Assembly (NCBI GenBank): GCA_037576195.1
Contig: CM075101.1
Span: forward strand, 49,662,001-49,726,000
Reading direction: 5' to 3'
DNA length: 64,000 nt
Origin: Phytoseiulus persimilis
Taxonomy: Eukaryota; Arthropoda; Arachnida; Mesostigmata; Phytoseiidae
In this document: positions 34,318-62,473 of the stretch, in pieces
Layout of the letters: each line of letters begins with the position of its first letter
How positions within the stretch are numbered: the first letter of the stretch is position 1
Position numbers and translations under genes: made by a program
The notes under the pieces: generated by a model
Databases searched by the model: none
What the model was told of the DNA's origin: nothing
What the model saw: the letters and a program-made list of their open reading frames with translations, nothing else

Positions 34318-34611
34318 TTATTCAATGGATGTAAGTTTGGAGTCTTGACCACTACAACAATGGCGGTAGAGCGTATAACACAGAGATCCGATGGAAGCGA
34401 TGACTACTATCACCATGATGAAGTACAAGAATTTGAACAAGGGACCACAACACTTCCCTGTGCCCCGGTTCTCGGCTGAGATGCTCCTTTCCGGGCCGAT
34501 TCCGTCCAGAAGCGTGCTGGACATTCCGAGATGTGTGTTTTCCGCCGAGTCGAGCTCTTGGACGCGCACGACGGTAAATCTCGAGGGCTCGGTGCTTGGA
34601 ATCGTCGTCAT
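34318..34611 (-). CDS. RFTV-family small membrane protein, short form, copy 1 (97 aa)
   Basis: The start MTTIPSTEP matches the shared start of all copies, so the longer upstream open frame is treated as 5' UTR. Residues 9-17 are PSRFTVVRV. A Ser/Gly-rich linker is followed by a membrane helix at about 61-83 (FKFLYFIMVIVVIASIGSLCY) and a short Cys-containing tail. There is no signal peptide, and a type II, N-in topology is inferred. The stop TAA lies inside the polyadenylation signal (GAATAAAT), implying a very short 3' UTR. The protein lacks the ectodomain found in the 36.5-kb copy. Function unknown; RFxV is the docking motif for SPAK/OSR1-type kinases, which is suggestive only. Confidence 0.65.
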   Translation of the reverse strand: MTTIPSTEPSRFTVVRVQELDSAENTHLGMSSTLLDGIGPERSISAENRGTGKCCGPLFKFLYFIMVIVVIASIGSLCYTLYRHCCSGQDSKLTSIE

Positions 34612-34781
34612 CGTGGGATGCTTAAGCGTTCTTCGTCCGGTCGGTTGTTCGGTCTTGGTATGAATGTGGCCGCAACGGAGGTGCACTCGGAGTGCCTGTT
34701 GAGTGCGAGGGACTCTCTCAAATGAGGGGCGATGGTTCGGAATGCCGGGACGGCGTCGTTCCAAGCGTACCTCTCTCCGTT

Positions 34782-34823
34782 CGTTATCAGTTCCGAGATT
34801 CTTCGCGGAATTTTCCAGGATTC
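34782..34823 (-). promoter_or_regulatory. Conserved upstream block of the RFTV genes
   Basis: Near-identical blocks built on GATTCTTCGCGGAATTTTCC sit 150-240 nt upstream of each RFTV start: here, 36714-36756, 40083-40120 (cut by the hAT-like element), 44217-44255, 46767-46805 and 49526-49564. Conservation could reflect a core promoter or only the shared duplication history. Confidence 0.35.
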
Positions 34824-35669
34824 GTCCAAGAACCGATAGCTGTGTGGCGAGTCACAAGCAAGTCTGTGAAGCAGCTCGGAATCAGTGATCGGGAGCTCGA
34901 GGATAATCAGCAGTATCTCGGAAATCCATCCGTTAAACTCAAATATTTGTGTTCAAACAGCCGATTGAACACGGCGTTGAGTGCTTTCTTTTTAGAGCGG
35001 GCGGAGAAGTGATCCATTCGGCTATGCGTTCCCCATCACGAGAACTTCTCATTCTTTCACTTCGAGAAAAATTCCGAATAAGCGGATGATCCAATTATCC
35101 GGTGTTCCCATTAAGCAGAGCCCGCTATATTACAATGTTGTGAGCAGATGCCCACAAATCGTGGCTCTGAGCACTTTTTGAAGAGACGGAGGGTACGAAC
35201 GCGAGGATGCCACCGCTGCTGGTGCGAAACACGCGTCGTTGAATTGCCGAGGAGCCTCGGTCTACTAAAACTTCGTTCGGTTGCATGCCACGCCTATCAT
35301 TAAGCGGTTTGTAAGACAATCAATGTCTTCGGAAGAATCAGTGAAAATCGCGGAGAGAAAGGATCCGGCCAATATCTCATCATCACTCGTAAACATTTAG
35401 AAAATGGATTTGTTGTACAACTCCCGGAAGAGATTTCGAAAACTGCGAAAAGCTCATGAGTTTCCGACCGAACAAAACTCCGGCCTCATGGGTTTCCGGC
35501 TTAAACCGTCCATCCCCCACAAAGTTGACATTATTCGGGAGCTCCCAGAGCCCAGGTTGACCGCGAAAAGAAATCACAACAGCGTGGGAAAAAGAGCAAA
35601 CTCGGGCTCTTCGAAGCAGATTTCTTCGGAGTACGACAGCGATATCGGATTTCAAGTTTTTATTCAAAG

Positions 35670-36513
35670 TTAACCTCTGGTCCTGATCTTGACTAGGATA
35701 GCGGGAATCGAGTCGAAAACGTCATTGCACATCTCTTGCATACATCAACAATACACTGCGTTGAATCCTGTGTCCAGTTTGTTGAGAACACAAGCTTCTG
35801 GTGCAGCGCTGCTCTTTGCTGCTCTCATGCATTCGCTTGAGTCCTCATCTTCCGTCGCCAAGCACCCGGAAGCCGTCAACTGGAATAGGGAATGAGGTCA
35901 GTTTACAATTTTCCCGAGCTTGGGGTGAATGAAACTCACGAGCGCTCAATTAGAACAACTGTCTTGGCGGATCTGAGGGTGGGTACAACCGTTTCGCATG
36001 GCAACGGAGGGTGACTCGTATGAAGCATTCCCAACTCACCTCGTTATTGTGCGTTTTCTCTTCTTGTCGAAACACGGAGAAGCAGAAGGGAGCCATGGTG
36101 GAATTCTCCCGAACATCACAGGGTTCCGTTCGCTGCTCCCCTGGTTCCATCGCTCCGTCGAAGAAGTTACACTTGAACTCGACGACTCCGGAGTCGTTTC
36201 TCGTTTCATCGGAGTCGACTTCTTGGGCGGCCACTGCGGACCGCTCAAGACGGCAGAGCATCCAATACCCGAAGCCGATGGACAATATCAGCAGAAGCGC
36301 CATGGCGAAACATAACAATCTGAGCAAGGGACCCGCACACTTCCCTGTGCCCCCATGATCGGCTGAGATGTTACCCAGAACCTGTCCGTTCTGACTTACT
36401 GGGCCGTAACTATCCAGGAGCGTACTCGAAAATCCGAGTTGTTCCGCAGCCTGTGGCTCCGGGACGCGAACCACGGTGAATCTCGACGGCTTGCTGACCT
36501 GAATCGTCGTCAT
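35670..36513 (-). CDS. RFTV-family long form: type II membrane protein with activin-receptor-like ectodomain and in-frame TGA
   Basis: Exon 1 is 36513-36040 (158 codons, donor GAG|GTGAGT). Exon 2 is 35879-35670 (70 codons, acceptor CTATTCCAG), ending TAA with AATAAA directly after. Order: PSRFTVVRV at 9-17, membrane helix about 61-83, linker, then a ten-position cysteine domain: Cys115, 132, 144 | 164, 175, 188, 202, [203], 204, 209. Pieces FKCNFF, NSTMAPFCF, SGC and YC-x-C...CN match the pattern and spacing of the activin type II receptor three-finger ectodomain. N137 is in an NST glycosylation site. Codon 203 (35747-35745) is TGA where the 61.6-kb relative has TGC, so the product is 202 aa unless the stop is read through (227 aa). 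No signal peptide and no kinase are present. A decoy or pseudo-receptor role is inference. Confidence 0.6.
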
Positions 36514-37629
36514 TGTAGCTCGATTGTGCGTTTTTCGTCCGCTCGGTTGTTCGGTCTGGATGTAAGTGAGTCCGCCACGAAGGTGCCTACAGATAACCAC
36601 GTGGCGTCAGGCACACCACTTGCTCTGTTGAGTACGAGGGAGTTTTTGAAACAAGTGGGGATGGTTGGAAATGCCGGGGAGGTTTCGTTCTAACTGCACT
36701 TCCTTCCAGTCGTGATCAGTTTCGAGATTCTTCGCGGAATTTCTCGGGATTCGAACCAGGTCCCGGGACCAAGAACCGGTAACTATGTGCCTTTGCCCCC
36801 TCTCCAAGCAGGCGGTCTGCGAAGCAACTCACAATCAGCGAACAGGAGCCCGGGAATGAATCAATAGCATCACACTTCAACCATTGTTGGAAAAACTCAT
36901 TCAGAACGAGAGCTCGCGTGTCTCCGCGACGCTCAGGTCTCCCTCGAGGTTCTGATCTCCCTCGAGGTTCTGATCTCACGACCCGTGGAGCTTCAGTGCT
37001 AGCTAACTGAACCGCCATGTCCGGCCCGAGTCCAGAGAACAGCTTCGGAACTTCCAAACAAGAGCCAGATATGCATTTAAGGCCGGTCGCATTTCTGACA
37101 TCATCACTGCCGGATTCGCCATCTTCTGAGTCTTACCCAAGCTCAGCGTTCGTGCCTACAGGAGTCAAAGAGGTCAGCCAAGGTGGCTTGATCTCGAGCG
37201 CACCCGAGCGGCGTGCCGACATGAGTAAACTGAGTAGAGAATCATGCGAGGCGTCGGTCAGGAGGGGACAGGTTTTTCCGAAATATTCCAACCCGGGGCC
37301 GTTTTATCATTCATCTCGAACACATATTTGGAAGGAACTAGTTCGGGAATTTCTGCTATATGTGCGCACCGTTCCGTATCCCGCGGGGCGGGGTGTCAGT
37401 GCCTCCTGTGTGGAGTGGGCTTCTTCGTAGCATACGTTCGGATATTCGGAATGAGAACTGGTCTAGAGTGCCGAATCCGGCCATACCAGGCCGACAAAAG
37501 CCGTACCATAGAAAATTCCAATCGAAGATTCTGGTAAATCAGCCGGCTTTTCCCTGGAAAACGACGATCGATGCCGGAGTCGACGCGAGCCTCGTCCTTA
37601 GGGTCGAAAAACCGGAGTGTAACCATTCC

Positions 37630-37830
37630 TCAAGAAATCGTCCGTCGACGAAGAGGAGACGCTCCAGGTGTCTGAAAACGCACGTGGGATAATCGCAGCT
37701 GAGGGCAGTCTCGCCGCACACATGGAGGCTTTTCCGAGATCTTGCTCGTGACTGGCATCATCTCAGAAAGGAGATCGGCTACAGTCGGAGCGTTCATTCC
37801 GATTTCGATGGAATCGACCTCAGTATCCAT
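37630..37830 (-). pseudogene. VxSIEI-type small ORF, unit 1
   Basis: The start MDTEVDSIEIGMNAPT aligns with the other VxSIEI units at 40940, 43284, 47588 and about 50290. The conserved pattern V-x-S-[IV]-x-I-x-x-N-A lies near the N-terminus. No SYGxNPIY end is found in this copy, and downstream sequence drifts from the others. Whether any transcript is made is unknown. Confidence 0.3.
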
Positions 37831-38788
37831 TGAAGGAAACTACTGAGACCAACTGAGAATGTTGATTGAGGAGCGAGATCCCACTCCCTTCCGGGGCGGA
37901 GCCGGGAGGAATTCCAGGCCAGAAGTATGAACTCTACACAGACATATCTCCACAGATTCACATTGGTAAGCTGCAACGCAGTCCGCATCGGGCGACTTAT
38001 CTCAGGGCGGCCCCAAAGGCGGCGATTTCGCTCCTGGCTTTCTTCATCGAGATGCTCTGGTTTATTGGCAAGAAAAACCAAGAATTCCAGCGGGACTTAT
38101 TCGCGATATCTCCCGAGCTCGGCTTGCTTGGAGTCCGGTAAGCTATTGGAAGAGCGAGAACGATGAACCGGAGAAAAGTCAATTACCTGTGGCAGATCGA
38201 TAAACGACACAAGGAGATTCGATAGAACAAGAACGCGGGCTTAGCGGAGCTTATTTCAATCCATGCGTCGGTCCATTTTCACTCAGGTCACACTCCACGT
38301 AATATCAGAGATCGTGAGAACAAAGGGGTGTTGCACTCGAACCAATAACAACACATTTCGCACAGCAGTTGATAATACACGTGCATCTCTTCATCAGTTC
38401 GACCGTTGCACGGATGAGGAGAAAAAAGCGTCTTCATGAAGACTTCCTCCTGATTACGATCTCGAACGGAAAAAAAAAAACAAATTCTCCAGACTCGGGT
38501 GCAACCTCCGATATCTCTAGCTCAGCGCATTGCCTCGATCATAGAGTTATTCGAGAAACTGGTACCCCAAAGTTGCGAAACTGGCGCTGGGGGAGCGAAA
38601 GAGAGTCTTCTACATGTCGCCTATGATTCGAAATGAGATAATCGCTCTCCTGGGAAACCAGTCTCGGTGAAAGTTTCGAAGCAGGTGTCTTGAGCCAAAT
38701 ATTCTAGCAACTTTGTCGACAGCGCGCCAAACGTGTCGCATGACGATCAGATGAGCCAGATACTGCGCGAAAATCGACAGATCCCATT

Positions 38789-39120
38789 TCAGCGTGGTCG
38801 AATCTCTCGTCGATTTGATCGAACCGGAGGATCAATCTTAAGAGGAGCTGTCACAGTTGATTCTACAGACGATAGGATCAGACGATATCGAGGAGGAAAA
38901 TTCCAAAGTCGAGCGAGAACGGCTTCAGCAACTTCCTGAAAGTTCTTTAACGCAGGGAGGGAAGCTGTTGTCGGAAAAAGTCCGTTTGAACTTCTGCAGC
39001 TCATAGACAACTCCAAGCTCGATATTTTCCTCGCAATCATGGTAGCTCACTTGCGAATCATATCGGCAGTAGCGATAAGCTCTGTTGGCTGTCAGAGAAG
39101 TACAATATTCTCTCAACATT
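38789..39120. other. Ambiguous coding-like segment, both strands
   Basis: Plus strand: an acidic open stretch (DDIEEENSKVERERLQQLP) and, in a shifted frame, a hydrophobic run (LDIFLAIMVAHLRIISAVAI). Minus strand: a Cys-rich frame with FSDNSFPPC, similar to the N-S-x-x-P-x-C stretch of the array ectodomains. I cannot decide which is real; a decayed array member is one possibility. Confidence 0.25.
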
Positions 39121-39644
39121 CCATAGCGAATTTCTGGCGTATTTCCCTCAGATTCGGCTGCACGAGGTCACGCATTAGAGCTTTCTGAGCTGGTGGTAGA
39201 TTCATGCCTAGCCCGGTGGGATTCCAGTTATAGAGGCCAGGGAGCTCACTATGAGATTCGTTACTTCGAGTTTCTGAAGCTCCCCAGAACGACCAAATCA
39301 ACTGTTCGATCCAGCCGCGTTTTCACAATACGACTAGCCTCGCCAAAGAGAATTCGCACTGAAGTTTTTCAGCCGGGCAATGGATGTGAAGGGTGAACTC
39401 TCTGATGCTCCGCTCGGGGGGTCGCAATCCTGTGTTTGTATGCTCCCGGCATTTCGGGATTGGGGCTATTCGATAGCGTGGGAGTTATTTTGAACCCTCA
39501 GCCTCTTTCAAACGGAACGAAGTCGCGGAGAGACGGCTTATCTCACACAGTGCATTCCTCTCAGAGGCACTTCTAGAGCGATACCAAATAAGCATGCAGA
39601 AACGGAACGGTCGTAACGGCTTCATATGGTTTATTCAATGAACG

Positions 39645-39935
39645 TCAATTTGGTCCACTGCAGAGGTGGCGGTGGAGCGTCCAACATCCGAAGCCGATGG
39701 AGAAGATGAAAAGCAGCGCCATGATGAAGCACAGCGACCTGGGCAAGGAGTCAGCACAGTTCCTTGTGCTCTGATGATCGAATGAGGAGCTTCTCAGAGC
39801 CTGTCCGTTTCGACTCCCCGGGCCGATTCCATCCAGAAGCGTATGAGACACTCTGAGAATGTTTCCCACAGCCTCTGGCTCCGGGACGCGCACCACGGTG
39901 AATCTCGACGGCTTGCTGACCTGAATCGTCGTCAT
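39645..39935 (-). CDS. RFTV-family small membrane protein, short form, copy 3 (96 aa)
   Basis: The start MTTIQVSKPSRFTVVRVPEPEA is nearly the family consensus. The membrane helix (LCFIMALLFIFSIGFGCWTL) is at about 70-89, with the tail ending CSGPN. TGA is followed 16 nt later by AATAAA. The frame is intact. Its conserved upstream block (40083-40120) is broken at position 40117 by the hAT-like element, which could affect expression. It is the duplicate partner of the pseudogene at 49.05-49.35 kb. Confidence 0.62.
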   Translation of the reverse strand: MTTIQVSKPSRFTVVRVPEPEAVGNILRVSHTLLDGIGPGSRNGQALRSSSFDHQSTRNCADSLPRSLCFIMALLFIFSIGFGCWTLHRHLCSGPN

Positions 39936-40116
39936 TGTAGCTTGATTGGGCGTTGTTCGTCCGCTCGGTTGTTCGGTCCGGATATGACCGAGTCCGCGAC
40001 GCAGGTTCACTCAGAGGCTCTGTTGAGTGCGAGGGATCCTCCTAAATGAGTAAGTGGCGTTCTGACCGCAGCCCTCTCGGTTCGTGATTAAGTCCGAAAG
40101 TCTTTGCGTGATTTCT

Positions 40117-40345
40117 CAGGGGGGGGGGGGGGCGGGGGCAAGGGGGCCATGGCCCCCCACAAAACTCTTCGATAATACTGGGAAGGGTGGATTATATTCT
40201 ATTTTAATGGACGAAAAACGTTCCACAAAGATTCAGTCTTATCAGGAAACTCTCACAGGTTTGAAAACCATGTTGATTGCGACGATGATGATCATCATCA
40301 TCATCACATCCTTGCCGCCCCCAAAAAAAGCTGGGTACGCCCCTG
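40117..40345 (+). mobile_element. Non-autonomous hAT-like element, copy 2
   Basis: 229 bp bounded by CAGGGG and CCCCTG; the right end reads CAGGGGCGTACCCAGC in reverse, a hAT-type terminus. The left terminus has expanded to G14. It is homologous to 1793-2021. It has no ORF, and no clear 8-bp target duplication. It sits in the conserved upstream block of the RFTV gene at 39645-39935. Confidence 0.6.
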
Positions 40346-40691
40346 ACCGGTGCAGGAGATAACTCCAGCCTCGTGTATGCGGTCTGATGTCGGGCTGAAA
40401 ACACTCTTCAAGGAATCGTCCACCAACGTAGAGGAGACGCTTCAGGGGTCTCACATGGGATAATCGCAGCCGTGGGCAGTCTCGCAGCACACATGGAGAC
40501 TACTTCCCGGGAATCTCGTTCGTCGGGAGGCTTGCGTCATCTCATAGGACAAATTCGCAGCCCAAGTCGCAAGAAGGCCCGAGATTTGCAACCTGGTTCA
40601 GAGCAGTTATGTACCGCTTGGTCGAATCATCGTACGCTTGAATCAACCTTGAGAGCTACGGAGTGAATCGTTTCGAAGCCGTACTTGCATG

Positions 40692-40940
40692 CTACATGTG
40701 CCGGAGGCGACAGTTAGTATAAATGGGATTGTATCCATAGCTTACCCTGAGCAATGTGCACTTTGTCTCGTCATCGTTTTGCTTGCCCACTTCAACGTAT
40801 TGTCGCTTTCTCGGCTTCTCCCGGCCGACAGCCAACGGAAATGATCTAGAATCAGAGAGATTGGCGTCAGTCGAGGCGTTCGAATCAATTTCGATGGATT
40901 CGACCCGATAAGCCGTTGAACGAAACCACTGAGACTCCAT
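40692..40940 (-). CDS. VxSIEI / SYGxNPIY small protein (82 aa), best-preserved copy
   Basis: The frame is intact from an ATG at 40940. The N-terminus has YRVESIEIDSNASTDANLS and the C-terminus KQNDDETKC then SYGYNPIYTNC. Two other copies keep the C-terminal motif (47360-47588 and 50091-50300). Between the copies at 40.7 and 47.4 kb, differences over SYG-NPIY-NC fall mostly at third codon positions (AGC/AGT, TAT/TAC, GGA/GGG, AAT/AAC, CCC/CCA), a sign of past selection on protein. No signal peptide or membrane helix is seen. It may be one exon of a longer gene. Function unknown. Confidence 0.42.
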   Translation of the reverse strand: MESQWFRSTAYRVESIEIDSNASTDANLSDSRSFPLAVGREKPRKRQYVEVGKQNDDETKCTLLRVSYGYNPIYTNCRLRHM

Positions 40941-42223
40941 GGAAACATATCTCTGCAGATTCACATTAGTAGCCCCTTTCACGTTGGCGATTTCACATCC
41001 CCCAGTTTTCCGGCCAGCCCCGCTGCTTCGCTCGGTCTCAATGAGGAGCGAAGCGGTTGATCTGAGTGACAGAAAGCGTCAAAGCGGAAGTGTCATGGGC
41101 GTCGTTCAGCCAGTCGAGTGGACAAAACGAGCCTCCGTCGATATAACAGATGACCGTACAGCTTCATATTGGAAACCTTCGCTAGGATCCTTCTCGGAAG
41201 GCCTCGGGAAGAATGTACTTTTCTGACTTTTGGCGGAAAATATCGATCGACTCCCCGCCAGAGATTCGCCTCAGATGATGCGGAAATTGAAATTTTGCTT
41301 TGCTGGATCACGAGGTTCTCTGGAACCCTAGAGTATTTTGATTCTGAACTCCCTAAATGCGCGCAGAAATTCCACTCGCAATCGAAAATCGCTCTCCGTG
41401 GTCTGCGGTCTCTGAGACCGTACGCTGACGTCATGGCGCGCGCCGTCACTGCGTATTTTCAGTCCACCAGCTCAGGTGAATTCTGGGATAGAAGCCGGTC
41501 CCGTCCGCATTGTATACATCAACATGTCTGTACTGTGCGATTACTTCATCGATCCCGTTTCCTCTTTACTCCCTCCCAGTTTCTGTGGGAGCGTCGGCCG
41601 ACTCACCGCACAGCGGTCTGCTGCTGAAGCCCCCTCGACCTCGGAAGCGGGCCAGCCATCGCTGCTCAACGTTGAGGCATACTGCAACGCTTTCTCCTGA
41701 AGCAAGGTACCGGAGATCGGAAGTGATCGCGACCATCACGAGCAGCATGGGTGCGTCCGTAAAACAGCGCCGACTTTGCGCCCGGATGAACTTCCGAACC
41801 TGCTCTCACGGGTTTTTGTTGGAAGCGATGTTTCGAGGATTCGTTCGCTTGCGTGCACGTGATCAACGTGCCGATGTCACAGCGCGGGTCATCATGATTC
41901 GCTGTAGCGAGTGTTTCGGCCTCCAAGATGGCGCTTTCTTGGTTCTTTGTAAATGAAACAAGCTGAAGCGAAGTTCGTTTTAGCGAACGGTTTTCAACGT
42001 GCTTCCTGAGGCGGGTCGGGCAGAAAAATCTTTGGCGTCCGTTGCACCGAAATTTCGTGGTGACGGTGCTCGTTGTTACGATGTTCCACCTTATACCCGA
42101 GCTCGGATGAGATGCATCGAACCAGGGTTCAACCGCAAGAATCCTTTGGGCGGATCTGAGCATGAGTGGAGCCGGTATGCATAGCAATGAAGGTTGTACT
42201 CGGATGAAGCATCCTCAAGTCAC

Positions 42224-42480
42224 CTCGTTGTCCTCTCGTTTCCCTCGTCCTGTTGGGACATGGAGGGGGAAATCTGCGGACACCACAAGTTTCCGCTCGC
42301 TGCTCCCATGGCTCCATAAATCCGCCGAAGAAATTGCACTTGAATTAGAAGACTTCGGTGCCGTTTCTCGTTTCACTGGAGACGACTCTTCGGGCACCGC
42401 TGCGGACCTCTCATGAAGGTGAAGCGTCCAACATCCGAAGCCGATGGAAGTGAGGAGAAGTAGCGCAAGGTGATGAGAGC
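42224..42480 (-). pseudogene. RFTV-family long form, decayed copy
   Basis: The helix remnant (LALLLLTSIGFGCWTL) and the linker (HERSAAVPEESS) match the 36.5-kb gene. Then a frameshift and an in-frame stop just before FKCNFFGGFMEP. The third-cysteine region is shortened, and the donor after AACGAG is kept (GTGACT). The RFTV-bearing 5' part and the second ectodomain exon are absent. Confidence 0.6.
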
Positions 42481-42739
42481 TGTTCGCCGTGGGAGTTTTC
42501 ATTTCAATGGGCGGAGAGCACGAGTGGGGAACCGAGATTCCATGGCGACGCGCACAGCGCAGGATGACTTGCGGAGAGACCTGTCGCCTATTTCAAAGAG
42601 GAATCGGGAAGAACGATCTCTAGGGGGGAACAGCAGTCGATCTGATCTCCGTAATCTTACTCAGTCGCGATGAATGTGATCCTTCATCCTCACGGAGGAC
42701 TTCTCGACCCCGAATCCGGCAGAGCCGCATGATTGATGT

Positions 42740-43060
42740 GTCTACCGCCGGCGAGCCAACGGGGAAATGAGGCAACGGGCCCTGCCAGAGCTGCGGAAAC
42801 TCGATGGCGGCGGAAATCCAACTGCGGCTAGTCGCCGAGCCGGCGGATGGGCGGCGCGGCGCATACCTCCGACTGTGAAGTATAGGAAGCTCTGGGAGCT
42901 AATTTGTAGGATGCTGAAGCTAGCCGGTAGTCCTGTGCGCGCCGTAGGAGGGGAGCCGATTATTATTCCAGGGCGTTCTATAGGAGATTGTTCCACGACG
43001 GAGACGGCAGATCTCGCCGAAAGTTGCGCGGGAGAGAACTTAGGCTTCGTCTTCGCGGTC
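42740..43060. other. GC-rich insert between array units
   Basis: Base composition differs from its flanks (for example CGCCGAGCCGGCGGATGGGC). It has no counterpart in the duplicate at 52.8 kb. No coding or terminal-repeat structure is recognised. Confidence 0.3.
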
Positions 43061-43173
43061 TGATGACCACAGTTGGACCACTGCTCAAAAAATCGTCCGC
43101 CGACAGGAGGTAACACTTCAGATGTCTGAACACGCACGTAGGGTAATCCCAGCTGTGGGAAGCCTCCTGCTAC

Positions 43174-43760: not shown

Positions 43761-44066
43761 TCAATGTAACTTAGTATCTCGTTCTCTACATAGATGGCGG
43801 TAAAGCGTCCAACTCCCAAGGCCGATCGATGCGAAGAGGAGAAACGCCATGATGAAGCACAGCGAGCTGGAGAAGGTTCTAGGATACGCCCTTGTGCCCC
43901 GATTGTTGGCTGAGGAGCTCCTCAGAACCTGATCGTTTCGACTTGCCGGGCCGTTTCCATCCAAACGAGTATAACACATCCCGAGATGTGTAATTTCCGC
44001 AGCCTCTGGCTCCGGGACGCGGACCACGGTAAATCTTGAGGGCCTGCTGACCTGGTTCGTCGTCAT
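43761..44066 (-). CDS. RFTV-family small membrane protein, short form, copy 4 (101 aa)
   Basis: The start is MTTNQVSRPSRFTVVRVPEP. Membrane helix LCFIMAFLLFASIGLGSWTL at about 71-90, tail RHLCRERDTKLH. The stop TGA overlaps the signal (TGAATAAA). Frame intact. It is closest to the 46.3-kb copy, sharing EAAEITHLGMCYTRLDG. Confidence 0.63.
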   Translation of the reverse strand: MTTNQVSRPSRFTVVRVPEPEAAEITHLGMCYTRLDGNGPASRNDQVLRSSSANNRGTRAYPRTFSSSLCFIMAFLLFASIGLGSWTLYRHLCRERDTKLH

Positions 44067-46278: not shown

Positions 46279-46593
46279 TTATTCAGAGAACGTCGATTCT
46301 GTATCTTGATCTCCACGGAGCTGGCGGTGAAGCGTCCAACTTCCGAAGCCGATCGATGCGAAGAGAAGAATCGCCATGATGAAGCACAGCGACCTGGAGA
46401 AGGTTCCAGGACACCTTGTTGTGCCCCGAGTATCCGCTGAGGAGCTCCTCAAAACCTGATCGTTCCGACTTGCCGGGCCGATTCCATCCAAACGAGTATA
46501 ACACATCCCGAGATGTGTAATTTCCGCAGCCTCTGGCTCCGGGACGCGCACCACGGTGAATCTTGAGGGCTTGCTGACCTGAATCGTCGTCAT
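46279..46593 (-). CDS. RFTV-family small membrane protein, short form, copy 5 (104 aa)
   Basis: The start is MTTIQVSKPSRFTVVRVPEP. Membrane helix LCFIMAILLFASIGFGSWTL at about 71-90, then the tail RQLRGDQDTESTFSE. The stop TAA is inside GAATAAAA. Intact and near the family consensus, with its conserved upstream block at 46767-46805. No ectodomain exon is present to the left. Confidence 0.65.
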   Translation of the reverse strand: MTTIQVSKPSRFTVVRVPEPEAAEITHLGMCYTRLDGIGPASRNDQVLRSSSADTRGTTRCPGTFSRSLCFIMAILLFASIGFGSWTLHRQLRGDQDTESTFSE

Positions 46594-48960: not shown

Positions 48961-49049
48961 AACCTGTGTACGTCAGGGTGGATCTATCAGGATGGCGTTT
49001 AAGAGCGAAACGTATGCAGGAAAGGTCGGGGCGGCTTCATATGATTTAT

Positions 49050-49351
49050 TAAATAAACGTTTGGTGTCTTGATTTCTACAAAGATGGCGGTAAAACGTCC
49101 AACAGCCGAAGCCCGATGGAAGCGATGACTACTATCACCATGGTGAAGCACAAGTATCTGAACAAGGGAACGGAGCACTTCCCCTTTGCTCCGATGATCG
49201 GCTGAGAAGCTTCTCAAAACCGGTCCGTTTTGACTTTCCGGTTCCATCCAGAAGCGTGCTGGACATCCCGAAATGTGTTTTCCGTAGGCTGCGCTTTTGG
49301 GACGCGCACCACGGTGAATCTGGAGGGCTTGGTGCTGGGAATCGTCGCCAT
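49050..49351 (-). pseudogene. RFTV-family short form, decayed copy
   Basis: The start MATIPSTKPSRFTVVRVPKAQ is preserved, but a two-base deletion after GAAAACACA (compare 34.5 kb) shifts the frame. The helix (LCFTMVIVVIASIGL) is readable only in another frame and is shifted again near its end. The polyadenylation signal survives as TTAATAAATC. Confidence 0.65.
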
Positions 49352-51450: not shown

Positions 51451-52112
51451 ATCCAATTCCAGGCAATACTGGTGTTTCTTCCCGCCCTGGGCGGTTGCCA
51501 TGAAATAACGAGGAGCCGAATTCTCGCGCAAAAAAACGCAACTGAAACAACGTGATCGCAACAATCACGAGCAGAATGGGTGCTTCCGGAGAACTGTGCC
51601 GTCTATGCGCCCGGGAAGACTCCCGTAGGTTCGCTCGGCCTGTATCGAGGAGGGACATCTTCCTGGCTTGCCTTTCCTGGCCGGTTCTTGCGAGAAATTA
51701 GAAGGACCGTCGAAGGGATGCTTCGAGCATTCGTTCGGTTGGGTGCACGTGATCGACGTGCTAACGAAACAGCGCGGGTCATCATGACTGGCTATGATGA
51801 GTGTTTCAGGCTTCAGAATGGCGCGCGTTTGATTCGTTGTAGCGAAAAATCCGCTCCCACGGAGTTCGTTTCAACGAACGATTTTTAACGCGCTCCCTAC
51901 GGCGGGCCAAACAGAAAAATATTTTGCGTTTGTTACATCGAAACCTCGCAACAACGGTTGTCGTTGTAACAAACTGTTTCTGTATCCCCAGGCTCGGAGA
52001 GTGGGGATCGATCGAGCGTAGAACCAGAACAGTCCTTTCGGTGGATCTGAACTTGGGCGACGCCGGTTCAAATGGTAGCCATGGTCAACTCAGATGGAAC
52101 AAAATCAACTTA

Positions 52113-52385
52113 CCTCGTTGTCTGCGTTCGTTCGGTGTGTCGGAACCTGGACAACCAAAACGGGAGCATCGAGGAGTTCCTCCGGAGATCAAAAGTTTCC
52201 GCTCGCTGCTCCCCTGGTTCCATCAATCCGTCGAAGGGGTTGCACTTGAAGTCGAAGCCGTTTTTCGGTTCACTAGAGACGACTTTTCGGCACCACTGCG
52301 GACCCCTCATGAAGGTGAAGCGTCCAACTTCCAAAGCCGATGGGAGCGAAGAGAAGCAGCGCAATGATGAAGCACAACTGTGAAG
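52113..52385 (-). pseudogene. RFTV-family long form, decayed copy 2
   Basis: The helix reads LCFIIALLLFAPIGFGSWTL in one frame and stops soon after. The ectodomain (FKCNPFDGLMEPGEQRAE, then NSSMLP) is in another frame and has lost two of its three cysteines (ETF and PFW for EPC and PFC). The donor is kept. A GC-rich insert begins at 52385, where the RFTV part should be. Confidence 0.6.
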
Positions 52386-52849
52386 AGAGCGTAGCGCCGC
52401 GGGAGATCACGGCGGCGGCTGAAGAAAGAAACGGCGGCGACGTTTGTCGCAGCGCGCCGTGGCGGAGGGCTGCCTCCCTCCCATCGCTGCGTGCAATGGT
52501 GGACGCGCTACTGTCGACAGTTCATCGGTGGTTGAAGAAATTCGATGTCCAACTTCAGAGCCAAGTTACTCGAGTCAAGGAAAGAACATCGGTAGAAACA
52601 ACGCAGGCCCTGAAACGCCGGAGATCTGCAGCCGATATCGATGGGCGAAGAGCACGATCTCAGAGCCGCGGATCCAATCGCAACGTGCACAATGCAGGGA
52701 GACTTGTGTAGAGGGTTGTTGCCTATTTCATTGAAGAATCCATAATGGTGACCTGGGAGAGGACTGCAGTCGATCTGGTCTCCATTATCTTCCTCAGTAG
52801 GGATGAATGTAATGATTTATCCTCACCGAGGACTCCTCGTCCCTGACGC

Positions 52850-53960: not shown

Positions 53961-55931
53961 GTTTCTTCGCTGGTTGCGCTCGTCAGAGGGAATGAGCTGT
54001 ACCGCCGATGCTGGTCTTCATATAGGAATTATCTCCAAGTAGGGACCGCCTTCGATCACCCTTGCAGTCTCCATTGCGATTCCTCCTCGCCTTCGTCTTG
54101 AGCCCTCGCCGATTCCGCAAACGCGTCAATGTGCGTCAATGTCTCGATGCGAGGGACGAGAAACCACAGGAAGCCCCACAGGAAGCTGTGAATCGGAATT
54201 CTTCGCAGGAATGAACTCCTCCTTGAACTACGGGTTGACATCTATGGTTCGCATACAGGATTTCAAGGCTCGATACTTTGTCTCAAGAGGACCGGGACGA
54301 ACGAGACGAGCGACGATAAACCAAAAGAAGCGCGATGAGATTGACGACTGTAGAGTTGCTGTTATCAAGTTATGATGCTTAGATAAGCGAACCAGGAAGG
54401 GGGAAGCATCCCTGTTCCCGTGTTTCGACGGACGTCAACACTCCGAGAATCGCCTTGGAGTGAACCGATTCAAGAGGATCTGTTCTTCGTCTGACTTGTA
54501 CACGAGCTTTCGGGACGGGTCCAGTTGGCTGGTTATTGTTAAATTTCTCGGGAAGTCTGAAGCCAAAGGCTGCCGAATTCCCGTCGCACTCCAGAGGAAT
54601 CGATAATAGGGTTCGGAATCCTAACTGTAGCTCAACAGTTGTTCATGAGGCGCACAATATATTCGCAAAGGAAGGGTCAAATTGGAGAAATTCGATCGTG
54701 CGCAGCGGCCGGAAAGTTGATGAGTCGTGGGATCCGGATCGCGACTCGTGATCAAGTTTGATCGGAGACCCACTACCTGTTGACCTCGGAATTGGTCGCT
54801 AAGGTCATCGGAGTAGCTCGCTTCAGGGGACGCGTAGGCCCTGTTCACCAGCAGCGCACGCAATGCACTGCCGAGTCGAATAATGCACTTCCAACATGAC
54901 GACGATCGAGTACCTCGGAATGCTGCTAGAGACAATGCAACATCCCCAGCATTCAGATTGCAACTCACATCTGAGGCTCTGTCTTCGGGCGTTTCTCACA
55001 ATCAGTGTGTCTCTGACGAGAATCCATATCACTCTCAGCGGTTTCCAGATCTGACCTAGCAAAACCGAGGACAGGCGAGTATGCTATGTTTCGGAGCCTT
55101 GTGGACATGAACGTTGAGTTTTCAGTCGCGGGACGCCGGAGGCGAACTGGGGCGTTTCTGGCGACTGGTCTTGGTGACTTACCCAACAGACGCAAGCTCT
55201 TCAGCTATACCTGCCGACGATGCGGTCAGCTGAGGCGTCTGTGTTCGCTTTGCGTAAGCGGAGTTCGAGATCCGTGTCAAGAAAACGCCTAGGTGCCTGA
55301 AGAACTTGACAACGGGGGTAGAATGTTCGTTGATGGAGTATCTCTAAATTGTCAGAGAGCATCTTTGGGAATGCGCATTCGGGGATAGGGGGGACCATTT
55401 TGATCGACTGCCTAAGTGTCATTGGTCATTATAAGTGGAGGGGCTGGTGATCGGAGAGTGCAACTTGAGATCGTTGACATATGCCAGGTATCGAATGAGT
55501 TGAGCCGTTAGGGTTCGGTCTGGGTCATTTGAGAGAAGATTGAGGAGCAACGCATCAGCCGCAGAATCTTGGTGGCACTTCCGACGGGGCAGGGTCCACC
55601 TCAGGGAGGGTTCCACTTATTCGAAGGATTCGCACTCGGAGTGTCGACGATCGCTCCTAAATTCTCATTGTGGTCTCTCCGCATGGTATGGGGAGGCCTG
55701 TGCGAGCCTTGAAATCCGCGGTTTTCTTGAAGAAATCGATGATTTCCAACTCGACGCGGCTGCGCGAAATCAGCGAGAGTTCTAGAATGAGGCGAGAAGG
55801 AATCGCAATAGAGACGGTAGGGGGCGGTCGGAGGGCGGTCCTTGTTCGAAGTTATTGCCTTTATAAAGGTCGGCATCTGCTTCACACCTCATTCGCTCTA
55901 ACAGATGCCAGCATCCAGAGAATATCCAATC
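53961..55931. other. Intergenic region between the head-to-head pair
   Basis: It should contain both promoters. No gene is recognised. Frames such as 54621-54968 (-) have no support. Confidence 0.4.
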
Positions 55932-56201
55932 ATGAACATGCCCAACACGACCAGCTCGGGCAAATCAGCAGCCGTGGACTCAGGAATCTCGAGAACTACA
56001 GAAGACGGCGTCTTTCACATAACCATTGAGAGCCAGAACGTGACTACCACATTCAGACTCAACCGCTCGCTGGAGTCGCAATGGAAGCTAGATGTCATGG
56101 GAGCTATCGGAGCTATCTCTCTCATGTTGTTCCTCATGACTTGCACTGGGTACCTGATCGGAGAATGGCGTCGTCAGGGGGGTTCCGGACTTGGGGACTA
56201 G
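55932..56201 (+). CDS. Small membrane protein, FRITIES subfamily (89 aa), inverted partner
   Basis: The start at 55932 (MNMPNTTSSGKSAAV) was chosen over the in-frame ATG at 55905 because it matches the 53.7-kb partner in position and length. It shares SGKSAAV, VFHITIESQN, LNRSLESQWK, the helix AIGAISLMLFLMTCTGYLI and the tail EWRRQ with that partner. AATAAA is at 56257. It is the only array-type gene on the plus strand, so the segment was inverted or copied in inverted orientation. Confidence 0.68.
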   Translation: MNMPNTTSSGKSAAVDSGISRTTEDGVFHITIESQNVTTTFRLNRSLESQWKLDVMGAIGAISLMLFLMTCTGYLIGEWRRQGGSGLGD

Positions 56202-58760
56202 CCGCGACGCTCGCCGCCGTAAACAGGTCGGAAGAACTTAAAAAATGTCCCTCGTGAATAAAATGTTGAGTTTAACAATACAACTCTTCTGATTCCATGA
56301 TAACATTAGAAATGAGGCAGTCAGAAACGACCCCGTGGGGTCTCCGGATCAAGAGTGAACCAAAGTGATATCAATGGTCCTCCAAGTTCGGATCTTTGAA
56401 CTCAAGCACTCTCGTCGCTGATATTCTTCGAAGGAACAGGTATTGAGAGGCAAGGATCCCTGACTCGCTTCTAGGATCGCTTCATCAGAAGCTATCAAAG
56501 TAGGAGTTCCAGTTCTCTCCAACGATCTCGACCCTGACATGATGGAGGGCTGACATGTGGCGATGTCGACACTGAAAGACTTGTTTGCAGCTTTGACGCA
56601 AAGAGTCACTACTCTGGCGTGTGCTGCGTGTGTCATTCGCTCTCCTCAAACTTGTCGTAAGGGCAACCTATTCTACGAGTGGTACTCCGTCGTCCGAGCG
56701 ACGGATATCCGATGAAGCTCGTGGCTGATTGTTGTCAAACTTTGCTCGGAACGATGCGGAGCGACTCTTCTTTGAAAAGCAGGAATCTACCAATCGTTTC
56801 TATCTTTCATTTAGATGCGAATCGACGCAGAGGGATCGGGCATTTCGAAAATAGGAATCGTGGTTGGTTTCTTGTCACGCACCTTCCAATTCAGGATCGA
56901 ACTAATTCACGCTCTAAGTGTGATTGCCCAGGACCCTCAGCAAGTTCGAGAGCTGATCCAATGAATTCAGAGACGATACACGGTGGGAAACGCGGACGCT
57001 GGATCGCGACCTCCCGCAGCGTCTCAAGTCTTCGTGCGGTGGAGATATACATGTGCGAATCTCAGAGAATAGTGCAGCACAGATGAGGCGGAGATTCCGG
57101 GACGATGACATGAAAATGTCATCCAAACATCGAAGTGCGTTGAGGCATTTCAGCCAGTTACAGCCTTCGGACCTCAATTGGTTTGTTCGACGTGTGAGCC
57201 TCCCTAGATATCGGTCGAATCTCCGATCCGACTCCGGCGCCAACAACCTGGCCGAAATGCGCAATTGGCTCTCCATCCCGCTGTTTGGGCGAACGATTGC
57301 TTTCCCCGCTGTGGAGGTTGCAACGCGTGATGCCCATCTCCTCTCGTACAAAGACAGATCTGATCCCCGCTATCGTAGCAGCTTCGGACCAGATTCGCAG
57401 GTTCTGATTATGACCTCGTATAAGACGTTCTCGCGAAATCTCTCCCGGTGGTGTGGGATGTCATTCACAAACCCTTCCACTGAACCGGTCAGGTTTCTGA
57501 TTTTCGTCGTGATCTCAAGCCCACAGAAGCATGGTCCTGAGCTTCGTTGCGGAGACACCTTGTTCCGAAAAGGATCGGGGCAGTGGGAATAGAGGTCTTC
57601 CGGATTCTGAGGCACTGGTTCTTGAATGTTCGAGGTCAATGTAGACCCTCGTTCGGAGTGATACCAGCGACGTACCCCGGAGCAGCGATCCAAGGAATAT
57701 CCAAACTCCGAGTTAGCGCTCGAAATTTTCATCGAGTCGCTCAGAGACTCTCCCAGCCATTCTGATCTCGAACCTGAAGCTCTTCTTGCTATCAAGCTTC
57801 GGAACCCATCCGAGGTCGAGTCACGCGTTATTCGAGTCGAGAACAGCTGAACCAGCGTGGTAAGCGATATCGAGCGATCCGACCGACGGCGTGTGGCGTA
57901 AATTTCATATGAAGAGGAAGACCAGCATACTCTCAAATCGACTCAGATCAGAAAGGAACTCGCCCATTCCGGCTAACCTCCGCTGCATCACATCATTTCT
58001 CAGGGAGGAGAGTATCGAGAATGTCTCCCTTACGGAGGCCTGAACTCGAGCCCCCGGCCCGCCGATGGTGAGCTTGTGGCAATGCCCTCGAAAACGGAAC
58101 CCATCCTCAACGGAAGCGCAGGGGATCCAAAGAAATCGTTCGAGGAGCGAATATCCTCTCCCATTGAATAATGCAGTTCATTCTTTAGAGCCTCTGTTCC
58201 CTATGATATACCTCTATCAGTTCGTCGCGGAAGGGGACCCACTGAATTGCACTCGCCCGACTTCCTCAGGTCCCCCCCCCCCCCCAGATTGGACACGGAA
58301 AATTTCTCGTTCAAATGATGGAGCCTCGGTAACGATCGGAAGAGTCCCACAGTGTCGAGAAGTCGGCCCGTGTTCGGAGAATCGTCGAGGGAGCATCCCC
58401 GAAACCAGAACTCGTCAACGATTTTTCCCTCGTCCAGCTGATGTTTAAAATCTTTGTGAATATCATAACGATGCAACTCCATCGAGCACCGTCTGCCACC
58501 AATCCATTCGTAAAGCCTCTACGCAAAACAGCGGCATCGATTAACTCTCTCAACCATTCATCCGTCCGTATATTGGGTCGTTTCATCTCCCCCTCAAATG
58601 TCTGAGGCCCTCGCTGTCGTCAAGTCCAAAAATCGGTATTCCCAAAATGCTGGGAGATGCATCACGGGAAGGTTACTATTCTTGGACAATCCAGCGAATC
58701 ATCACAAGGAAACGGGATCATCTTGAGAAAAGTCATCGTCATATAGCGATGGCTTAACAG
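56202..58760. other. No gene recognised
   Basis: Long overlapping frames exist on both strands at 56900-57940 (for example 57053-57592 + and 57370-57936 -). The minus frame has SSGPCFCGL and IRNLTGS, weakly like a three-finger segment, but nothing decides between strands. C14 run at 58272. Confidence 0.3.
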
Positions 58761-59340
58761 CTACGATATCGAGGAGGAAGAAGTGCGGTCAGAGTCCCAT
58801 GAAGTTTTAGGCGGGATGCGTTCTCCCGAGCATTCGAAAACTTCAATATCGAAGGACAACAACAAGATGACGTTCCACGAGAACTCGACCAACAGCCCGG
58901 AGTCGATCTGCGGGCAATGATATCTTGATCTCACGTGGATTCTGGTCAATGGTCCCGCTGGTTTCTCCCACGGAAAAAACGCTTCTCTAACTTCGTGAGT
59001 CGCAATGTCAGATCCGCAATGTCGCCACCATCGCGGGAATCCCTGGAACCGGGGGTAGAAGACTCGGACTCGTCGGTCTCGCGAGTCCAAGTCCACGAGT
59101 TCAGATGAAGGCGCAAAATCCTTTCTTCGAAGCCAGATCCGTATCTCGGTCATTGCGTGAAACAAGTCGTTGTGCTGATATTTTTGGAGGTATTTGAGGT
59201 TTTCGCGGTCTTCGTAAGCCATGCATCGCTGGGGCACCGTCGTGTTTGCAACAGTTCGAGTCTCCAACCGCTTGTCTGCAGTTTCGTGAGGTGCCGTAAG
59301 ACGATGTTCGTCGAAGAACGATCACGATCGAGAGCGATTC
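58761..59340 (-). pseudogene. Possible relic of an array ectodomain gene
   Basis: The minus-strand reading SFFDEHRLTAPHETADKRL, then NTTVPQRCMAYED, parallels FKCNFFDGAMEP...NSTMAPFCFSVF of the 36.5-kb gene. A TGA stands where the first cysteine codon would be. The long continuation (to TAG at 58761) has no second-exon cysteine pattern. All three frames are open here, so this is tentative. Confidence 0.25.
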
Positions 59341-61573
59341 GAAGGGCGAGGTCACAAGATTGTTGAACTACTGGACTGAAATCCGGGTTCTGACAGCTTC
59401 ATGGGCCAGAGCACGTGAGGACAAGATGAGTCCGACAAAGTCTATAGCAAAGCGAGACCGAAGGAGAAATGTCCAAGACGCCGTTTCCACTGCTTCGTGA
59501 AATTACTTGTCCTTTCGGTCTCAAATGCGAGTCTCTCTCACTCGGGATGCAATGAGTCGAATCGGCAGTACTCTGAATCGCCTCATGGACCTGCAATCAA
59601 TCCACCAGTGGAATAATATCATCAGGGGGAACGTCTCCTCGAATGACATCAGCAACTGCGTTGCTCTTGGAAGTGACATGTATCACAACGAAGGCGAAGG
59701 AGGGCAACTAGTAGACGAATCCAAGGAGAACTTTGATTGTTTCGGAACGCCGGGCCCGGAAATTGACGATATCTACCCGATATCTTGTTGGAGATCTCTT
59801 GAAGTTATCGATGGCATGATGTTGAAGAATCCATCGCGCAGCGGATGTAAGCAGCACGAATGCAGAGCGCTTAACTCGCCGCTGATCGTTCTGAGGATAC
59901 ACGTGTTTCCCGTCTAGCTCCGTTCGGCGACTCTGGAGCATTTTTCCTCGGCATGAATCTTCCCCGACTTGAGTGCGGTCGACCACATCTGAAAGCATTG
60001 GAATAAACTTCACTCTTGAAGGTCAAGAACTTTACGAGAATATATCGAGCAGATGTTGGCTCGGAATCTTTCATGAAAGATATGAATCATATTACGATGA
60101 TTGACACGCCTGACCGAGGGCCAAAGCCCGCATCACAAACCGGATGGAGAACGAGAATTCGCTACCGCAGTCGGCTTTACTGCCGCCCTTGGCTACCATA
60201 GATATATTTTCGCAGCTAAAAACCTTCCGCTGGTTGAGAAAAGCTTCAAGCTGAATACGAATACTGGATGTCGAAACCCTGTCTCACAAGGGATTGAAAT
60301 CGAATAACTCTCATCGTTCATAACCACTTACGTCTTGCAACGAGACTCTCCGAGGCAAGCCATTCGCAGAGGGAGCAGGGCACGCTCCTTACGGAGGAAT
60401 TTCGAGGGGTTGCCATCTCGACGCGAGCTGTGTGACGTTCTCGAGGAAAGATGAGGAGCCAATCAGATGTTGGAGGTCTCCAGGTTTATTCACGAATGTG
60501 GGCCTTCAAGTTGATCCTCTAACGTCCAGGGCTTATTTTCTCGGCAGCACCGCCCATCATGAGAATCGTTATTGAGGATCAAACTAGGATGAAATCCTCC
60601 TGAACCTTCGGGGCTCTACGGCTCGTGGAGAGAGCTCCGCGCTCCGCCGGAGGAGGTTACTGTATCCCTCGATTAGAGAACTTGCTAGACTTCGCAAGAA
60701 TTGGTTCCTTGGACAGTGAAATCGATCATCCGGTGAACCAATCGAGCACACTCTACGGCATGTTCTTCTGGTCTATGAAGGCCATCCGGTGTTGCACAGA
60801 GCTGTACGCAGCTTCGATATGAAGCGGGACTCGATGCGAACGCTTTCCGGAGGCGCCCACTGAACAGTAACTCATTCAGAAGGCGTAGACGGGAGGACGG
60901 ATCCGAAATGACGCCTTCGTGTGAGGGCCCTGCGATGCGAACGTTCGAACGGCCATCGTGAACTCACAGAGGGACGCGGAGAGCGGCTTCCCACTGACAT
61001 CGCAAGTCAGCAAGGACGTTCTCAAGATTCATCCCTCCGACAATAATCTTGTTTCGCTGCCAGAAATCAGCGTCACAACGCAGGAATGTCCCGACTGAGG
61101 ATTCCGCAGAAGCGATCCTGGGCGAGTCGTCCGCAGGTGTGGGGACTAAACCAGAACCAAGTCGACGCGCGCTCCAACTCCGAATCAATGGTACGAAGCA
61201 TCAACCTTAAATCAACCGAAGCAAGCGAGCTTCGTTTCGATCGACAGAATGCAAATAATTGAGTGCTCCCGAACGAGACAGTTTCAAATGAAACCGTCGT
61301 TAGAGAGTCGACACATCGCTTCAGTCTTCCGGACCTCGCGTCTCCTCTAGTTCGTCCATTCTCCTATGCCCACCCGGTTGAGCGATCTCGTGATCCTTGA
61401 TTTCATCATCGCCATGACGCAGTCTGCTTCTTGGTTGATATTTTTTTTTTTTTTCTGATTTCGCTGTCCGGCTGGAGATTTACTCGAGGCAATCCGGAGC
61501 TTCTCCAATCTCCTTTCACGAGGACCACAAAAAAAAACAAATGTGCTACTGGAACGTTGTGTCATCGGATGTT
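59341..61573. other. No gene recognised
   Basis: The plus-strand frame at 59507-59917 is open for 136 codons but lacks motifs. A T run is at 61440-61454. Confidence 0.35.
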
Positions 61574-62473
61574 TTATTGTACTTCCCTGACAACGAGCGA
61601 CGGCATTGTTTTGAATGCGCTGTTGCACAATCGACGCAGGCAGCAACAATACAGAGCTTTGTATCCGCCGTTGATATTCTGCAGAATGCACGCGCTCTGC
61701 GTCTCGCTCTGCTTAGCTAGTCCAACACAATCTTCAGTTGCGTTGTTGTTCTGAGTCCAGCAGCCTGTCGACGACACCTGTAATCAAGCCGTAAGCTCAG
61801 CATCCGGACGCCATCGAACCCGAGTCTTCATACGGGCCCGAGCACGAATTGAAACATAGACTGAACTCTCCCGACTCACCTTGAAATTATGAGTTCTGAT
61901 GTCATGGCTGTATGCCGCGTAACAGTATGGAAGCATCGACGAGTTTTTGGGAGTTTCACAAGATTCTGTCGAATATTCAATCGCTTCATGCGTATTGGAC
62001 GGAGACACGAAGTGGCAGGCGAGAAGGTCCTTTGGACTGGTGAGGTTCCAAAAGCGTGTGCGTTGGCGAGCGGCATCGGTAGCTCGTTGTCTGCGTTCGA
62101 ACTCGACAACGACATCGGCAATTGTCGCGATCGCTATCGCAAAAAGCAGGCACCAGAGTAACAAGAGACACAGTAGTTGCATTGCGAGACGGCCGTCGCT
62201 CTTTTGCGTCGCACGCCTCCTCGGCTCCTTGGCCTCAATCTCAATGAGCGGCTGCATTGGACCGCTCAACTTGCCTGCACTTCCTGACTGCGTTGGTGCC
62301 GCATTCGACGGATTCGCAGCAGTGCTGACTCGGGACATCGTCGCGGCACAAAAACTTCGACTGAACAGGGTGCTTCGAGCGCAGGCTTCTTTAAAGAGAA
62401 GATCGTGCCGGAGTGGGCGGTGCTCAACCCTTCGTTTTGCCTCCCCGCAACCTTCGGATAATTGCTTCGCCAT
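61574..62473 (-). CDS. Type II membrane protein with intact activin-receptor-like three-finger ectodomain
   Basis: Exon 1 is 62473-61880 (donor AAG|GTGAGT) and exon 2 is 61777-61574 (acceptor GATTACAG), phase 0. The length is 265 aa from the first ATG, or 220 aa from MSRVS at 62338; the start is uncertain. The basic cytosolic part includes PLIEIEAKEPRRR. The helix LLCLLLLWCLLFAIAIATIA is at about 99-118. The ectodomain has ten cysteines: 153, 172, 184, 204, 215, 228, 242-244 and 249. Signatures ACHF, NSSMLPYCYAAY, TGCW and YCCCLRRLCN match the order and spacing of activin type II receptors (CFATW, QGCW, FCCC..NMCN). N177 and N210 are possible glycosylation sites. No signal peptide or kinase is present. 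The TAA stop lies inside AATAAA. It is the best-conserved relative of the array, possibly founder-like. Ligand binding is inference. Confidence 0.72.

What the first reader, a model, noticed from the sequence alone, without database searches (positions are those of the whole stretch)
34318..62473. Tandem family of type II membrane proteins related to an activin-receptor-like three-finger ectodomain
Two genes (36.5 and 61.6-62.5 kb) place a ten-cysteine domain C-terminal to a single membrane helix. Cysteine order and exon split match the activin type II receptor ectodomain, ending CCC..xCN. Established: real activin receptors are type I proteins with a signal peptide N-terminal to the domain and a cytosolic kinase. 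Here the topology is inverted and the kinase is absent. Inference: secreted-face decoys or co-receptors for TGF-beta/activin ligands, or an unrelated use of the fold, expanded in this lineage.
Basis: partly seen in the sequence, partly recalled or inferred. Interest (0 to 1): 0.85.

Follow-up and report, generated by a model that had tools for sequence, protein, structure and literature searches.

The report
Kinase-less, membrane-inverted activin receptor genes
This animal genome carries a small gene family that keeps only the ligand-catching outer part of an activin receptor, apparently hung in the membrane the opposite way round and with no signalling kinase, so it probably mops up growth-factor signals rather than passing them on.

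Summary
The core observation holds. The 61.6-62.3 kb gene encodes N-tail, one hydrophobic helix, then a ten-cysteine domain ending CCC..CN; an intact relative of the 36.5 kb gene lies 0.7 kb beyond the window, and a third intact member sits on another contig. Homology to type II activin receptors (ActRII) is well supported: same-genome matches to three kinase-bearing ActRII genes, the intron position and phase of the canonical one, and a PDB profile search listing only ActRII/BMPR2. Pfam finds no kinase in the four family proteins scanned. Corrections: the 36.5 kb copy is broken (TGA at the middle Cys of CCC; key Trp is Leu), and most array copies are ectodomain-less short genes or relics. The canonical gene encodes its signal peptide in the same exon as half the ectodomain, so an N-terminal extension turning signal peptide into anchor would explain the inversion. 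Three ActRIIB hot-spot aromatics are kept in all three intact members, favouring ligand capture (decoy or competitor). One clade has a conserved SRFTVV[R/P]V tail fitting SPAK/OSR1 docking. Topology and function are inferred; the canonical signal peptide looks much the same by hydropathy and charge, so a secreted form is not excluded. Structure prediction was uninformative.

The parts
61880..62338 (-). exon 1 of the intact 220-aa gene (G61): N-tail, hydrophobic helix (residues 55-73), stalk, first half of ActRII-like ectodomain
   Evidence: homology to exon 1 of other members
61778..61879 (-). intron (gtgagt..cag), phase 0, four residues before GCW, same site as in the canonical ActRII gene
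61574..61777 (-). exon 2 of G61: second half of ectodomain, CCC..CN, stop codon overlapping AATAAA; no second membrane helix, no kinase
36040..36513 (-). exon 1 of G36: N-tail with SRFTVVRV, hydrophobic helix (residues 63-81), stalk, first half of ectodomain
35880..36039 (-). intron of G36 (gtgagt..ccag), same site and phase
35673..35879 (-). exon 2 of G36, broken: in-frame TGA (35747-35745) at the middle Cys of CCC, and GCL instead of GCW
   Evidence: no SECIS match
34318..34611 (-). short copy S34: N-tail + helix, no ectodomain, AATAAA at stop
39645..39935 (-). short copy S39: N-tail + helix, no ectodomain
43761..44066 (-). short copy S44: N-tail + helix, no ectodomain
46279..46593 (-). short copy S46: N-tail + helix, no ectodomain
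48985..49351 (-). frame-broken short copy
42215..42470 (-). relic of an ectodomain exon 1 (frame broken)
52110..52406 (-). relic of an ectodomain exon 1 (cysteines lost)
59788..59994 (-). relic of a G61-like exon 2 (TAG, cysteines lost)

Best explanation
A duplicate of the first two exons of a type II activin receptor gene lost the membrane-spanning segment and the kinase and gained a longer N-terminus, so that the former signal peptide now serves as an uncleaved signal anchor. The products are type II single-pass proteins that present a ten-cysteine ActRII three-finger domain outside the cell. They most likely bind activin/BMP-type ligands (or the ligand surface that ActRII recognises) and, having no kinase, dampen or redirect signalling as a membrane-tethered decoy or cis-competitor. 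Shown: gene structure, homology, shared intron, lack of a kinase, retained cysteines and hot-spot residues. Inferred: topology, fold, ligand binding, inhibitory effect.
For: Same-genome homology: G61 to an intronless ActRII-kinase gene on C3, E 1.8e-15; the C2:39.2 Mb member to the same gene, 2.1e-14. Reciprocal search with the canonical ActRII ectodomain: 8 of 8 matches at E <= 5 are its own two exons, the two C3 receptor genes and four family loci (G61, C1:49.727, C2:39.2, C2:3.67). Profile of the three intact members only against the PDB: 18 of 18 sequences at E <= 10 are ActRIIA/B (one a fusion with type-1B) or BMPR2, best E 0.002. Pfam Activin_recp passes its cut-off for the copy at C1:49.7267 Mb (22.9 vs 20.9 bits). 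Intron phase 0, four residues before GC, in canonical ActRII, G61, C2:39.2, C1:49.7267 and G36. Ten cysteines in 3 of 3 intact members. The hot-spot residues Y42, W60, F83 of ActRIIB (PMC1802081 Table 1, passages seen) correspond to Y/F, W, Y/F in 3 of 3 intact members (alignments). Ectodomain under purifying selection between G36 and its C1:49.7267 copy: 19.5 of 70.9 silent vs 25.5 of 265 replacement sites, Fisher p 3e-4 on rounded counts. Helix KD19 2.2-2.9 and hydrophobic runs of 20-23 in the four ectodomain proteins; N-flank more positive than C-flank in G61 (+4/-1) and C2:39.2 (+3/-2); at least one sequon after the helix in each of the four.
Against: The canonical ActRII signal peptide has a similar profile (KD19 2.26, run 18, flanks +4/-1), so hydropathy and charge alone do not tell an anchor from a cleaved signal. 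Flank charge does not discriminate for the G36 clade (+0/+1 and +1/+1), and sequons also occur before the helix in G36, C1:49.7267 and C2:39.2. The N half shows no sign of constraint between G36 and its copy (p 0.83). A methionine in or just before the helix could start an ordinary signal peptide. Single-sequence structure prediction failed (pLDDT 43.7; 147 PDB matches at E <= 10, none at E <= 0.001). G61 and the C2:39.2 member score below the Pfam cut-off (15.5 and 20.1 vs 20.9) and G36 is not listed; one of the true C3 receptors is also below it (12.8). phmmer of the G61 domain alone against the PDB is not significant (best E 0.076). No transcript evidence.
Confidence: 0.53

Rival explanations
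1. Secreted decoy: the hydrophobic stretch is a cleaved signal peptide with a long n-region (or translation starts at the internal Met), so the ectodomain is released as a soluble ligand trap.
For: The stretch sits where the canonical ActRII signal peptide sits, in the same exon, and the two are similar in hydropathy and flank charge. G61 and the C2:39.2 gene have a Met at the start of the stretch and small residues after it.
Against: 54-62 residues before the stretch, against 13 in the canonical gene; hydrophobic runs of 20-23 in the four ectodomain proteins, against 18; in the G36 clade the N-tail motif keeps its amino acids while codons vary silently.
Confidence: 0.27
2. Unrelated reuse of the scaffold: the domain folds like ActRII but binds no TGF-beta ligand (for example adhesion, or binding of another protein).
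For: Only 20-37% ectodomain identity to the receptors or between clades; no ligand data.
Against: The three hot-spot aromatics are kept in 3 of 3 intact members.
Confidence: 0.15
3. Decaying duplicates without function.
For: Within the array G36 is broken, relics abound, and four open copies lost the ectodomain; the C2:3.67 Mb copy is broken.
Against: Three members are intact, two of them diverged to 37% ectodomain identity with all ten cysteines kept; ectodomain selection p 3e-4.
Confidence: 0.05

Closest known systems
Type II activin receptors (ActRIIA/ACVR2A, ActRIIB/ACVR2B, punt)
   Same: Ten-cysteine ectodomain, CCC..CN ending, hot-spot aromatics, and the intron site of the canonical ActRII gene of this genome
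   Different: No kinase, no helix after the domain; helix before the domain; chain ends 14-15 residues after the CN motif
BAMBI, kinase-less pseudoreceptor (start of abstract seen in listing: PMC9964332)
   Same: Kinase-less membrane protein with an activin-receptor-type ectodomain; antagonist logic
   Different: BAMBI is related to type I receptors; a gene that looks BAMBI-like (my reading; Pfam lists only Activin_recp above cut-off) is present separately at C2:15.755 Mb with the hydrophobic helix AFTER the domain
Soluble ActRII ectodomain ligand traps (recalled; engineered Fc fusions)
   Same: Ectodomain alone would compete for ligand
   Different: Here natural genes, probably membrane-tethered
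QVR/Ly6 three-finger proteins
   Same: Three-finger type cysteine pattern (recalled)
   Different: Pfam QVR is not listed at E <= 1 for the four family proteins scanned; it is listed weakly, below cut-off, for the two C3 receptors

Membership tests
Type II activin receptor (ActRII) | ectodomain homologous to ActRII | tested here: met
Type II activin receptor (ActRII) | ten cysteines ending CCC..CN | tested here: met
   3 of 3 intact members; not met by the broken 36.5 kb copy
Type II activin receptor (ActRII) | intron site and phase of the canonical gene | tested here: met
Type II activin receptor (ActRII) | ligand hot-spot residues 42, 60, 83 | tested here: met
   aromatic, W, aromatic in 3 of 3 intact members (hot spot from PMC1802081 passages); W lost in the 36.5 kb copy
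Type II activin receptor (ActRII) | membrane helix after the ectodomain and cytosolic Ser/Thr kinase | tested here: not met
   stop codon 14-15 residues after the CN motif in 3 of 3 intact members; no kinase in Pfam for the four proteins; kinase found in the two C3 receptor genes and in the canonical gene
Type II activin receptor (ActRII) | cleaved N-terminal signal peptide, type I topology | tested here: inconclusive
   long N-tail and helix favour a signal anchor, but the canonical signal peptide is similar in hydropathy and charge; no cleavage predictor available
Three-finger fold | three-finger fold in a structure model | tested here: inconclusive
   model of an unspliced reading, pLDDT 43.7, no PDB match at E <= 0.001; fold inferred from homology only
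BAMBI | type I-receptor-like ectodomain followed by a helix | tested here: not met
   ectodomain matches ActRII/BMPR2 in the PDB, helix precedes the domain
SPAK/OSR1 docking proteins (RFxV motif) | [S/G/V]RFx[V/I]xx[V/I/T/S] (wider consensus recalled; RFXV/I core seen in PMC4512625 passages) | tested here: met
   7 of 7 N-tails of the G36 clade examined; not seen in the G61 and C2:39.2 N-tails. Binding not tested

The most novel reading that the evidence does not exclude
In this lineage an activin receptor was turned inside out: its signal peptide became a signal anchor, making kinase-less type II receptors whose cytosolic tail, in one clade, docks SPAK/OSR1 kinases through an RFxV motif, so that activin/BMP-type ligand capture would couple to WNK-SPAK ion/volume signalling instead of Smads; the ectodomain-less short paralogs would act as competing tails.
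Probability: 0.1. Interest if true: 0.82.

Novelty: new variant of a known kind. Interest (0 to 1): 0.58.

Why it matters
Natural kinase-less regulators of TGF-beta-superfamily signalling that I know of (BAMBI, soluble forms; recalled) keep type I topology or are secreted. A receptor ectodomain re-hung as a type II protein would be a new route to a decoy and a clear case of signal-peptide-to-anchor conversion by N-terminal extension. Because a kinase-bearing gene with the same intron is present in the same genome, the steps can be read directly. The listings of seven literature searches aimed at this question (titles and starts of abstracts, and only 12 of 52 and 15 of 300 papers shown) contained no description of such a protein; the library is incomplete.

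Tried and rejected
Selenocysteine reading of the TGA in the 36.5 kb copy: no SECIS match in 34000-37000 (one chance-level match to another family), and TGC stands at that codon in the C1:49.7267 Mb copy; rejected as the likeliest reading. Structure prediction: an unspliced reading of the 61.6 kb domain (intron retained, TGA read as W), a contiguous form readable from the window letter for letter, gave pLDDT 43.7 and no PDB match at E <= 0.001; uninformative either way. The second structure job was not used. Pfam alone: below cut-off for two of the three intact members and not listed for G36, so homology rests on same-genome, intron and PDB-profile evidence. The PDB search with alignment A1 (best E 2.2e-6; 18 of its 19 matches are ActRII/BMPR2, one a nanobody at E 0.13) includes two true receptors among its five rows, so I rely on the search with members only. 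A first model of the 36.5 kb gene picked up the wrong ATG (39935) and was corrected (36513). Single-sequence PDB search with the G61 domain: best E 0.076, not significant alone, though all 12 listed matches are activin type II receptors.

Literature: no paper on such a family in the listings seen. A first search for the hot-spot residues found nothing; a second found PMC1802081. A size like that of a predatory mite (N. cucumeris 173 Mb, PMC6902594 passages) is only compatible.
Full report
What is there. The window is C1:49662001-49726000 of an unnamed 181 Mb genome in 127 contigs. On the minus strand the gene at 62338-61574 (here G61) has two exons, a 102-base GT-AG intron, and encodes 220 aa: a 54-residue N-tail, a helix (KD19 2.92), a stalk and a ten-cysteine domain ending YCCC..LCN, with the stop codon overlapping AATAAA. 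The gene at 36513-35673 (G36) has the same plan, but its CCC is TGT TGA TGT and its GCW is GCL; I read it as broken. No SECIS match was found in 34000-37000. A copy with 81% ectodomain identity (88 of 109) and all ten cysteines lies just outside the window at C1:49726714-49727553, plus strand, and a third intact member is at C2:39246507-39245684. A further copy at C2:3.67 Mb is broken within exon 1.

The array. Between 34 and 47 kb four copies (34.3, 39.6, 43.8, 46.3 kb) keep only N-tail and helix, and carry AATAAA at or within about 10 bases of the stop; a fifth is frame-broken (49.0-49.35 kb). Relics of ectodomain exons lie at 42.2-42.5, 52.1-52.4 and 59.8-60.0 kb, with weak exon-2-like traces at 40.7 and 50.1 kb (E 0.008 and 4.2).

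Homology. G61 finds an ActRII-kinase gene on C3 at E 1.8e-15 and the C2:39.2 member at 1.5e-17. The ectodomain of the canonical ActRII gene (C1:11.61 Mb) returns 8 matches at E <= 5: its own two exons, two intronless receptor genes on C3, and four family loci (G61, C1:49.727, C2:39.2, C2:3.67; G36 is not among them). The two C3 genes and the canonical gene score as kinases in Pfam. A profile of the three intact members against 177,635 PDB sequences lists 18 at E <= 10, all ActRIIA/B (one fused to type-1B) or BMPR2, best E 0.002. By contrast the Pfam Activin_recp cut-off is passed by only one of the four family proteins (22.9 bits; G61 15.5, C2:39.2 20.1, G36 not listed); one of the two C3 receptors also fails it. 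The tree separates family members from the kinase receptors with UFBoot 84 (nine sequences, so modest evidence); order within the family is unresolved (47).

Origin of the topology. In the canonical ActRII gene one exon encodes the signal peptide (13 residues, then a hydrophobic run of 18) and the first half of the ectodomain up to the intron. In the family the same exon encodes 54-62 residues, a hydrophobic run of 20-23 in the four ectodomain proteins, and the same half-domain, with the intron at the same site and phase, four residues before the GC motif. The simplest history (inference) is duplication of the first two exons, a stop after the domain, and an N-terminal extension that made the signal peptide an anchor. 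The stop falls 14-15 residues after CN in all three intact members, suggesting one origin. The intronless C3 receptors are unlikely parents because the family keeps the intron. Against certainty on topology: the canonical signal peptide itself has KD19 2.26 and flanks +4/-1, much like G61 (+4/-1); the G36 clade's flanks are uninformative (+0/+1, +1/+1); and sequons occur on both sides of the helix in three of the four proteins.

Selection. Between G36 and its C1:49.7267 copy, ectodomain changes are 19.5 of 70.9 silent and 25.5 of 265 replacement sites (Fisher p 3e-4 on rounded counts), while tail, helix and stalk show no constraint (p 0.83). The low silent divergence of the N half (dS 0.05-0.12 against 0.23-0.43 in the ectodomain) may reflect gene conversion. 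Among the four short copies dN/dS is 0.40-0.77 over six pairs; I tested three of those six pairs: S44/S46 p 0.022, S34/S46 p 0.0005 and S39/S46 p 0.50; also G36/S34 p 0.054. The pairs share copies and are not independent.

Function. PMC1802081 (passages and Table 1 seen) gives Y42, W60 and F83 as ActRIIB residues whose change to Ala strongly reduces or abolishes ligand binding (F83A perhaps non-native, as the authors note). The family has Y-W-Y (G61), F-W-F (C2:39.2) and F-W-Y (C1:49.7267); the broken G36 has lost the Trp. With no kinase, ligand capture by a tethered decoy is the likeliest role; co-receptor or other uses remain open.

A further lead. All 7 N-tails of the G36 clade that I tested carry SRFTVV[R/P]V; the frame-broken 49 kb copy was left out of the test, though its open piece reads the same motif. 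In the six copies compared by codon, codons 10, 12, 14 and 15 differ silently, and within SRFTVVRV the only amino-acid change is at a position the motif leaves free; pairwise identity is 90% in columns 9-18 against 56-67% elsewhere in the tail. This fits the RFXV/I motif read by the SPAK/OSR1 CCT domain (PMC4512625 passages); OSR1_C matches are present in this genome (4 matches; of the 14 control genomes one rings, below the cut-off). The match is post hoc and binding is untested; G61 and the C2:39.2 gene lack the motif.

Limits. No transcripts, no other chelicerate genomes, no signal-peptide predictor; the structure model was too poor to use.

Noticed in passing
C3:1434 kb (L005) and C3:1447 kb (L013), outside the window: Two intronless open ActRII-like receptor genes with ectodomain and kinase, beside the canonical intron-bearing ActRII at C1:11.61 Mb: probable retrogenes, so at least three ActRII-type kinases in one genome.
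   Followed up: partly
window 53952-53686 (-), 55932-56198 (+), 48904-48728 (-, broken): A second small family of about 89-aa proteins with one hydrophobic stretch (VF.ITIESQ..), no convincing Pfam match for the two scanned, interleaved with the array.
   Followed up: partly
C2:15755367-15755591 (L001), outside the window: Gene with an Activin_recp domain, then a hydrophobic helix and a short tail with no kinase: BAMBI-like by my reading, type I orientation.
   Followed up: partly
window 41.8-42.7 kb and 51.7-52.8 kb: About 10 kb-spaced repeats (families D11, D16, D19) that carry the two ectodomain exon-1 relics.
   Followed up: no
window about 40.15-40.35 kb and C2:3.6732-3.6733 Mb (L036): A shared insert-like stretch (GGTGGATTATATTCTA.. 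and a poly-C run) lies beside the 39.6 kb short copy and inside the broken C2:3.67 Mb copy.
   Followed up: no
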